A DNA stretch of 13,199 nt, from contig BLFN01000945.1 of assembly GCA_014634225.1 (NCBI GenBank), forward strand, positions 6,462 through 19,660, in the 5' to 3' direction. A program made the translations under genes and the position numbers. The stretch comes from Acropora yongei (taxonomy: Eukaryota > Cnidaria > Anthozoa > Scleractinia > Acroporidae). Shown in pieces: positions 2,787-4,241 of the stretch (within the stretch, counting starts at the first letter, position 1; the number at the start of each line of letters is the position of its first letter). Below the pieces are notes generated by a model. It ran no database searches, had not been told where the DNA came from, and saw only the letters and a program-made list of their open reading frames with translations.

Positions 2787-4241
2787 TTACAGTCGTTCTT
2801 CTTTTCCTGTGGGTTTTCCGTGACCGGAATCCTTTGCCTTGCGGCGAGCGCCATGGTGAGCTACTGATTTACGTGTGGCGTAATCCTTGCTGGGTAAGGA
2901 CCACACAACTTTCCGCCAATCACGATGTTCGTTATAGCAATCACACCAAGACCCAGCGATTTTCCAGTCGCAACCTTGCCATCCCCAGTCTTCCCCAGTG
3001 TTAGCGTATGCACTTTCCTTAGATGCTCCTGTATCTAGTTCCTCGGTCTTGTAGTAAACACAAGTTGGGCCTCGACAGGAACACCAAGTAGGTTTATAAT
3101 GGCAGTCTTCGTTGCTGTGGCAACCCTCTTTAGCGAGAGAACACTCGAATTCTGGATACTTGTCGTTGGACCTCTCCGTGTAGTCGAATTTCTGTATTTG
3201 AATTTCCTTCTTTTCATTTCCACCTTTTACGTATGGACAACCATAATTCAAGAAGCCGAGGTAGTAGTACTGCAGGTTTAGACCGCGGACGTAGTTGGGT
3301 GATCCTGATGGGAAACGGCTTTGTAAAACTTTCCAAATGGCTCTGAAGGTGTGCTGGACAGATGAATCTGTGTCTGCGGCTTCATTCATAAGCTGTTGAA
3401 TCAGTTCCTTAGACCTGTCATGCAACAGCTGGCTACGGGTTTCCCTGCTTCCTCCTCTAATGAACAGTTTATCAGTCGTGCTCATATCGCTTGCTTTAGA
3501 TGATTCACTTTTACTTATATTAGCGCATGCAGAGACACCGACCTTTCCAACGGATGTGGGGCCTGCGAAAGAGACGCAGCTTTTCACCTGGAAATCTCTT
3601 TCACTGTAAGATTTAGAGCTTCGCGAGAATGACATTTGCTTAATTCTTACTCCACGCATAACAGAAGTGACAACGTGGGAACCGTAATCGTCCAAGAAAT
3701 CATTATATGACCTCCACGAATTTTTCTCCCAGGGTTCATCAATCTTCAACGGCAATCGTTCCAACTTGTCCATAAAGCTTTGCTTCAACCTGTAGCTTTC
3801 GTCATTTAAACAGTCTTTGTTTAGATGGATCTTTTCTGTTAATGCCTCGACGATTAAGGAAATTCCACTCACCTTCGATTCGCTTGAACTTGTGCTCTGT
3901 GTTACACTATTGAGCGAAGTGCTAAGAGAATAAGCTGACTTCAATGAGGCATCTAATCCAGCTTGGTTTGCCAATTTAGTGTAGAAGTCCTTAGTGCTCT
4001 GATAATATTCAAAAAGACTTCTTGTGGAGTTTTCTTTTTCTTTTCTGAAGCATTCTGAAGGAAAAGCCTTAAAAATGCTTGTTTCTTTTTCCTTAAAGTC
4101 CTCCAGTAAGTTTGTTTTTCCAAGGTTAATGACTTTTCCAAGCTCTTGTGTTTCGCTGGTCGTCAGAGTGTCTTCGATTCCTCTGGCACTGGGTACAGAT
4201 AGGGCTGTCAGGTGAATGACAAGAATCAAGGGGACAATCAT
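2787..4241 (-). CDS. MACPF/perforin-family secreted pore-forming protein (copy A, intact)
   Basis: This 484-residue protein is encoded in one exon. The ATG at 4241-4239 is chosen: the longer frame begins at a TTG (4280), whereas this ATG has A at -3 and starts a hydrophobic signal peptide (MIVPLILVIHLTALSVPSA, residues 1-19). A Ser/Thr-rich stretch (about 105-123) and residues about 225-260 sit where MACPF proteins keep the two clusters that insert into membranes. YGSH at 186-189 matches the MACPF signature and RGG at 262-264 the conserved glycine bend. Cys 367, 374, 380, 387, 389 and 394 form an EGF-like C-x6-C-x5-C-x6-C-x-C-x4-C module, followed by three more Cys (424, 433, 435) and a basic tail. 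Length and order fit cnidarian MACPF-EGF proteins, which include sea-anemone toxins. It could equally serve immunity, digestion or development. Confidence 0.88.
   Translation of the reverse strand: MIVPLILVIHLTALSVPSARGIEDTLTTSETQELGKVINLGKTNLLEDFKEKETSIFKAFPSECFRKEKENSTRSLFEYYQSTKDFYTKLANQAGLDASLKSAYSLSTSLNSVTQSTSSSESKVSGISLIVEALTEKIHLNKDCLNDESYRLKQSFMDKLERLPLKIDEPWEKNSWRSYNDFLDDYGSHVVTSVMRGVRIKQMSFSRSSKSYSERDFQVKSCVSFAGPTSVGKVGVSACANISKSESSKASDMSTTDKLFIRGGSRETRSQLLHDRSKELIQQLMNEAADTDSSVQHTFRAIWKVLQSRFPSGSPNYVRGLNLQYYYLGFLNYGCPYVKGGNEKKEIQIQKFDYTERSNDKYPEFECSLAKEGCHSNEDCHYKPTWCSCRGPTCVYYKTEELDTGASKESAYANTGEDWGWQGCDWKIAGSWCDCYNEHRDWRKVVWSLPSKDYATRKSVAHHGARRKAKDSGHGKPTGKEERL

What the first reader, a model, noticed from the sequence alone, without database searches (positions are those of the whole stretch)
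3109..3325. 217-base identical tract between diverged MACPF copies: gene conversion
3109-3325 is the exact reverse complement of 10992-11208. In the first 105 bases after the copy B frame break I count 13 mismatches (about 12 percent), so roughly 25 would be expected in this tract, yet none is seen, including at synonymous sites. The tract covers the start of the Cys-rich module. The inverted arrangement favours such exchange.
Basis: partly seen in the sequence, partly recalled or inferred. Interest (0 to 1): 0.75.

Follow-up and report, generated by a model that had tools for sequence, protein, structure and literature searches.

The report
Pseudogene patch copied into coral gene
In a stony coral of the Acropora kind, a short stretch of a pore-forming-protein gene appears to have been overwritten by the matching stretch of a broken neighbouring copy lying in the opposite direction, a well-marked case of gene conversion in a group where conversion has been called very rare.

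Summary
Mismatches are 85/548 before, 0/217 inside and 18/204 after; Ks is 0.32, 0 and 0.17. Gene conversion is supported, and relatives give a direction. At 65 residues where copy B and copy A's Acropora digitifera relative differ, A sides with the relative at 39/47 before and 8/10 after, but with B at 8/8 inside. Only six adjacent residues (342-347) are specific to the B lineage; B-lineage proteins P0031 and P0121 carry them, A's near relatives P0001, P0002 and P0007 do not. So frame-broken copy B was most likely the donor and intact copy A the recipient. Two B relatives share B's shifted frame, so the donor was probably already a pseudogene. P0008 and P0124 also switch type within residues 303-342; assembly chimeras are not excluded. 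Caveats: no reads; a 19,660-base contig, partly withheld; neither flank alone rejects A beside the whole B clade (AU p 0.09, 0.13). Mechanism known; a new member, against a report that coral gene conversion is very rare.

The parts
2787..4280 (-). Copy A: intact open frame without intron, 497 aa from TTG or 484 aa from the ATG at which P0001 starts; MACPF protein of the DELTA-thalatoxin/alicitoxin-like kind; recipient
3109..3325 (-). Converted tract in copy A: at most 217 bases; 144 bases between residues 312 and 359, the outermost tract residues that side with B against P0001; only residues 342-347 are specific to the B lineage among the rows aligned
10039..11412 (+). Copy B region homologous to A; open frame 10394-11512 begins inside the gene; frame broken near 10.44 kb; MACPF match; donor
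10992..11208 (+). Donor tract in copy B
11209..11345 (+). Adjacent stretch of low divergence from A (7/137), possible trace of an older or longer exchange
10794..10893 (+). Most divergent stretch of the pair (28/100 mismatches; Ka 0.34, Ks 0.45 in the overlapping 90-base bin from 10805)
4738..5156 (.). Inner noncoding arm, collinear and inverted with 8751-9277; 26/420 mismatches
8751..9277 (.). Partner inner arm, with a 103-base stretch (8996-9098) that its partner lacks
6404..6554 (.). Innermost arm, partner 8370-8520, 7/151 mismatches; the genome search found only these two copies (a lower bound)
8370..8520 (.). Partner of the innermost arm

Best explanation
The window holds two divergently transcribed MACPF genes of a stony coral in a collinear inverted repeat with noncoding inner arms. 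A short non-reciprocal exchange (interlocus gene conversion) copied up to 217 bases from the frame-broken copy B into the intact copy A. Likely steps: a break or nick in A, strand invasion into B anchored in the conserved block at residues 310-329, short synthesis, and return to A (synthesis-dependent strand annealing or the like). Supported by data here: the mosaic and its direction. Inferred: the repair steps, the anchor and the timing. The transfer changed A's protein, above all six residues (342-347) at a hairpin turn, which now have the B type. Because two relatives of B share its frame state, the donor lineage was probably already a pseudogene.
For: Exact 217-base run, reached in 0 of 20,000 shuffles. 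Ks 0.32 / 0 / 0.17 across the tract. Of 65 residues where B and the A. digitifera protein P0001 differ, A sides with P0001 at 39/47 before the tract and 8/10 after, and with B at 8/8 inside (Fisher 1.9e-6 with the 3 'neither' columns dropped; adjacent columns are not independent). A against P0007: 5/183 before, 9/71 inside; against B: 46/183 and 0/71. Tract tree without B and P0031: A with P0001+P0002 rejected, AU p 0.004; A with P0007, p 7e-7. 5' flank: A with B+P0031 rejected, p 6e-8. Direction: P0031 (1/183 from B) and P0121 (9/183 from B), in the same shifted frame as B, carry residues 342-347 as in the tract; P0001, P0002 and P0007 do not. Genome searches found no third close copy (lower bounds).
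Against: No reads. The contig is only 19,660 bases and 1-6461 reads N. Residues 342-347 are one contiguous block; the other tract residues that side with B (312, 359 against P0001; 337, 356, 377 against P0007) are also found in some non-B relatives, so the protein evidence rests mostly on one block. Neither flank alone rejects A beside the whole B clade: 5' with P0124 included, p 0.09; 3' with P0031 and P0008, p 0.13. The B-lineage group in the tract tree has weak support (64/0). At the 5.8% rate of the noncoding arms, zero synonymous change in 42.3 sites is unremarkable (p 0.08). Orthologue comparison is at protein level only.
Confidence: 0.85

Rival explanations
1. Assembly artefact: consensus, polishing or a chimeric read wrote copy B's tract into copy A.
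For: The contig is small (19,660 bases) in an assembly of 365 contigs and 405 Mb, ends at the window's end, and holds an inverted repeat.
Against: The flanks differ by 15% and 9% and mismatch right at the tract ends, which should keep reads apart. The left flank has no second long copy among the matches found, so this is not an obvious redundant haplotype. A different record (P0008) has B-type residues after an A-type 5' part, though it may itself be a chimera.
Confidence: 0.07
2. Copy A was once wholly B-type (recent inverted duplication) and both flanks were later overwritten by A-type sequence from another paralogue; the tract is the remnant.
For: Noncoding inner arms are only 5.8% diverged (33/571), as a recent duplication would be, while the gene's 5' part has Ks 0.32. 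Proteins with one switch are on record (P0008, P0124).
Against: Needs at least two exchanges and an A-type donor, of which the searches found no copy in this genome (lower bounds).
Confidence: 0.06
3. No exchange: the tract is merely under strong purifying selection or low mutation.
For: Residues 310-329 of the tract are among the most conserved of the region compared (0.91-0.96).
Against: The tract also holds the second least conserved ten-residue bin (340-349, mean pairwise identity 0.57), differs by 7 residues and one gap between A and P0001, and has 0 changes at 42.3 synonymous sites where the upstream rate predicts about 11.
Confidence: 0.02

Closest known systems
Interlocus gene conversion between adjacent paralogues, inverted or direct (C. 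elegans hsp16, hsp70, fog-2/ftr-1), reviewed in PMC3966223 (passages seen)
   Same: Short tracts of identity between diverged linked copies, in either orientation, non-reciprocal
   Different: Here the donor is a frame-broken copy and the recipient a coral toxin-like gene; the identical tract (217 bases) is longer than the fog-2/ftr-1 tracts quoted there (minimum 9 and 3 bp, maximum 102 and 93 bp)
Concerted evolution of sea anemone toxin genes (Nv1, Av2; 'concerted-like' in Actinia tenebrosa MACPF), PMC6802032 (passages seen)
   Same: Cnidarian toxin families, MACPF among them, with paralogues more alike than expected
   Different: There whole paralogues cluster, and whether by lineage-specific duplication or concerted evolution 'remains elusive'; here a bounded tract with donor and recipient points to conversion at one locus
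Pseudogene-to-gene conversion (human disease genes, chicken immunoglobulin genes; recalled; PMC3966225 seen only in a search listing)
   Same: A broken copy donates sequence to an intact one and changes its protein
   Different: One event supported here; no evidence of programmed or somatic conversion
Palindrome arm conversion on sex chromosomes (search listing only)
   Same: Inverted arms with patchy homogenisation
   Different: Arms here are short, gapped and 5-15% diverged

Membership tests
Interlocus gene conversion | Bounded tract of identity with a sharp step at both ends | tested here: met
   left edge sharp, right edge followed by 137 bases at 5%
Interlocus gene conversion | Identity includes synonymous sites | tested here: met
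   0 changes at 42.3 synonymous sites, 29.75 at 115 upstream
Interlocus gene conversion | Tract and flanks of the recipient have different nearest relatives | tested here: met
   8/8 tract columns B-type, 47/57 flank columns P0001-type; AU tests of the tract and of A with B+P0031 in the 5' flank
Interlocus gene conversion | Each flank on its own rejects the recipient beside the donor's whole clade | tested here: inconclusive
   5' p 0.09, 3' p 0.13; best 3' tree puts A with P0001+P0002, support 90/75
Interlocus gene conversion | Non-reciprocal: donor keeps its own type | tested here: met
   B, P0031 and P0121 share residues 342-347
Interlocus gene conversion | Tract confirmed in single reads or clones | not testable with these tools
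   no reads held
MACPF superfamily | Pfam PF01823 above its curated cut-off | tested here: met
   44.1 (A) and 42.9 bits (B piece) against 21.5
MACPF superfamily | MACPF fold | tested here: met
   copy A only: model mean pLDDT 80.4; best Foldseek match perforin 3nsj, E 5e-13, prob 1.00, but TM-score only 0.44 over the whole chain
MACPF superfamily | Pore formation | not testable with these tools
   none

The most novel reading that the evidence does not exclude
A broken copy acts as a standing sequence reservoir: conversion anchored in the conserved block at residues 310-329 repeatedly swaps the variable hairpin and Cys-rich module between members of a coral MACPF toxin-like family. Three different junctions (copy A, P0008, P0124) fall within residues 303-342.
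Probability: 0.22. Interest if true: 0.75.

Novelty: new member of a known kind. Interest (0 to 1): 0.5.

Why it matters
A survey of coral genomes says that gene conversion in corals does not appear common and is very rare (PMC10236652, passages), and a sea anemone study could not tell concerted evolution from lineage-specific duplication in MACPF and other toxin families (PMC6802032, passages). The survey's stated argument, conserved exon/intron structure and mutations in introns of linked genes, would not register a short tract like this one. A bounded, polarised tract from a probable pseudogene into an intact gene makes the question testable at one locus, and warns that trees of whole coral MACPF proteins may mix histories.

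Tried and rejected
Purifying selection alone: rejected by synonymous identity and by the 7 residues plus one gap between A's tract and P0001's. Direction A to B: disfavoured because B-lineage proteins from other records carry residues 342-347 and A's near relatives do not. A third paralogue as donor: none found (lower bounds). A DNA secondary structure as a break hotspot: 10960-11240 folds worse than its shuffles (z +1.59; 193 of 200 shuffles fold at least as well). DNA of relatives in viral contigs: 3 stretches matched a pattern, none encodes a relative. PDB by sequence: one match, E 0.067, to a Disks large-like protein. A first AU test of the 5' flank (p 3e-6) left P0124 outside the B clade and so was too easy; with it, p is 0.09. 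The 3' flank tests with p 0.045 and 0.044 likewise left out B relatives; with P0031 and P0008 in, p is 0.13.

Full report
WHAT IS THERE. The window is the last 13,199 bases of a 19,660-base contig in a 405-Mb assembly of 365 contigs. Two MACPF genes are divergently transcribed: A at 2787-4280 on the minus strand, intact, and B at about 10039-11412 on the plus strand, frame-broken. Both match PF01823 above its cut-off. Between them lie collinear inverted noncoding arms: 4738-5156 with 8751-9277, and 6404-6554 with 8370-8520.

THE TRACT. 3109-3325 is the exact reverse complement of 10992-11208 and the run is maximal. In the gapless 969-base alignment around it mismatches are 85/548, 0/217, 18/204; 0 of 20,000 shuffles reached such a run. 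Ks is 0.317 before, 0 in, 0.171 after. A change-point scan also finds the step (LLR 36.6 against at most 15.0 in 200 shuffles) but places the right edge at 11345, including 137 bases with 7 mismatches. The noncoding arms differ at 33/571 sites, 5.8%, much less than the gene's 5' part. So arms and gene parts do not share one age, and at this lowest background the synonymous identity alone would be weak evidence (p 0.08).

WHO GAVE TO WHOM. Of 120 listed relatives (of 203 found) I aligned 22 with A and with the open piece of B. In the 5' flank A is close to P0007 (5/183) and P0001 (13/183) and far from B (46/183). In the tract A equals B (0/71) but differs from P0001 (7/70 and a gap) and P0007 (9/71). 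After it A is again nearer P0001 (4/68) than B (11/68). P0031 (1/183 from B in the flank) has the identical tract, and P0121, found with B as query, is 9/183 from B and agrees with the tract at 63 of its 65 aligned residues. At the 65 residues where B and P0001 differ, A takes P0001's state at 39 of 47 before, 0 of 8 inside and 8 of 10 after; it takes B's at 6, 8 and 1, and neither at 2, 0 and 1. Against P0007 the pattern is alike: the tract columns side with B and nearly all 5' columns with P0007, but after the tract sides are mixed. Six of the eight tract columns, 342-347, form one block found in this form only in A, B, P0031 and P0121, and with one change in P0008; the states at 312 and 359 are shared with other relatives. 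Trees of 25 rows (P0033 dropped, P0127 not used; P0121 dropped after the tract, where it has no residues) agree in part: A with P0001 and P0002 is rejected in the tract (p 0.004), and A with B and P0031 is rejected in the 5' flank (p 6e-8). Against this, A beside the whole B clade in the 5' flank (p 0.09) and A beside B, P0031 and P0008 in the 3' flank (p 0.13) are not rejected. The best reading is B to A.

THE DONOR IS BROKEN. B's open frame starts inside the gene, and a genome search with A's protein counts two stops in B. P0031 and P0121 begin in the same shifted frame as B's ORF, so the break is hardly an error of this assembly and probably older than the split of these sequences. The donor lineage was thus probably a pseudogene at the time; the conversion itself is not dated.

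WHAT CHANGED IN A. In the model of A (mean pLDDT 80.4, 48-row alignment) the tract (320-390 in 497-aa numbering) covers the end of helix 315-322, helix 328-347, the hairpin 351-367 and the start of the Cys-rich module. Among the 25 rows, residues 310-329 (484-aa numbering) are highly conserved (0.91-0.96) and 340-349 is the second least conserved bin (0.57). Residues 342-347 sit at the hairpin turn. What the change does is unknown; no function was tested.

RECURRENCE. P0008 is mostly A-type up to residue 312 and mostly B-type from 342 on; P0124, which has only 54 of the 183 5'-flank residues, is mostly B-type up to 302 (to 315 against P0009) and mostly other-type from 337 or 342 on (P0124 with P0031 and P0121 in the tract is rejected, p 1e-5). 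With A's left breakpoint this makes three junctions within residues 303-342. Both proteins come from contigs of 2.4 and 4.0 kb without a named source and may be assembly chimeras, which form most easily in such conserved blocks.

LITERATURE. Searches: gene conversion, MACPF, coral: 6 papers, 5 listed; concerted evolution of anemone toxins: 8; Acropora, MACPF, toxin: 20; at least 4 of 5 conversion and palindrome terms: 44, 15 listed; pseudogene, conversion, venom: 3; Acropora, gene conversion, tandem, gene family: 16, 15 listed; interlocus gene conversion with scleractinian: 0; conversion, pseudogene, cnidaria, paralog: 27, 10 listed. In these listings I saw no title or abstract start that reports a bounded conversion tract in a coral MACPF gene; only open-licence papers are held. 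PMC10236652 says coral gene conversion is very rare (passages). PMC4657232 offers extensive conversion in Acropora fluorescent-protein genes as one of two readings and calls the evidence in monGFP unclear (passages). PMC11090067 reports four MAC copies in A. millepora (passages); my genome search with A's protein found only A and B, a lower bound.

VERDICT. The kind of event is known; the probable pseudogene donor, the changed hairpin and the coral setting make it a moderately interesting new case.

Noticed in passing
4738-5156 / 8751-9277 and 6404-6554 / 8370-8520: Noncoding inner arms of the inverted repeat are less diverged (33/571, 5.8%) than the gene's upstream synonymous sites (26%), so parts of the repeat have different ages or were homogenised at different times.
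   Followed up: partly
8589-8661 (minus): A tRNA-Thr (GGT) gene by ARAGORN, also an Rfam tRNA match, lies in the spacer of the inverted repeat.
   Followed up: no
10794-10893 (B) / 3424-3523 (A): A 100-base stretch with 28 mismatches, the most divergent of the pair, rich in replacement changes; may come from another paralogue or be under diversifying selection.
   Followed up: no
9499-9639: An imperfect inverted repeat of about 140 bases on itself (76% over 145 columns), like a small foldback element.
   Followed up: no
115-2263: Parts of the left flank match two other contigs (C339, C25) at 83-95%, so dispersed repeats probably lie there; ORF 1875-2201 has a sub-threshold zinc-finger-associated match.
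   Followed up: no
P0124, P0008 (database proteins): Natural or assembly chimeras that switch between A-type or other-type and B-type within residues 303-342.
   Followed up: partly
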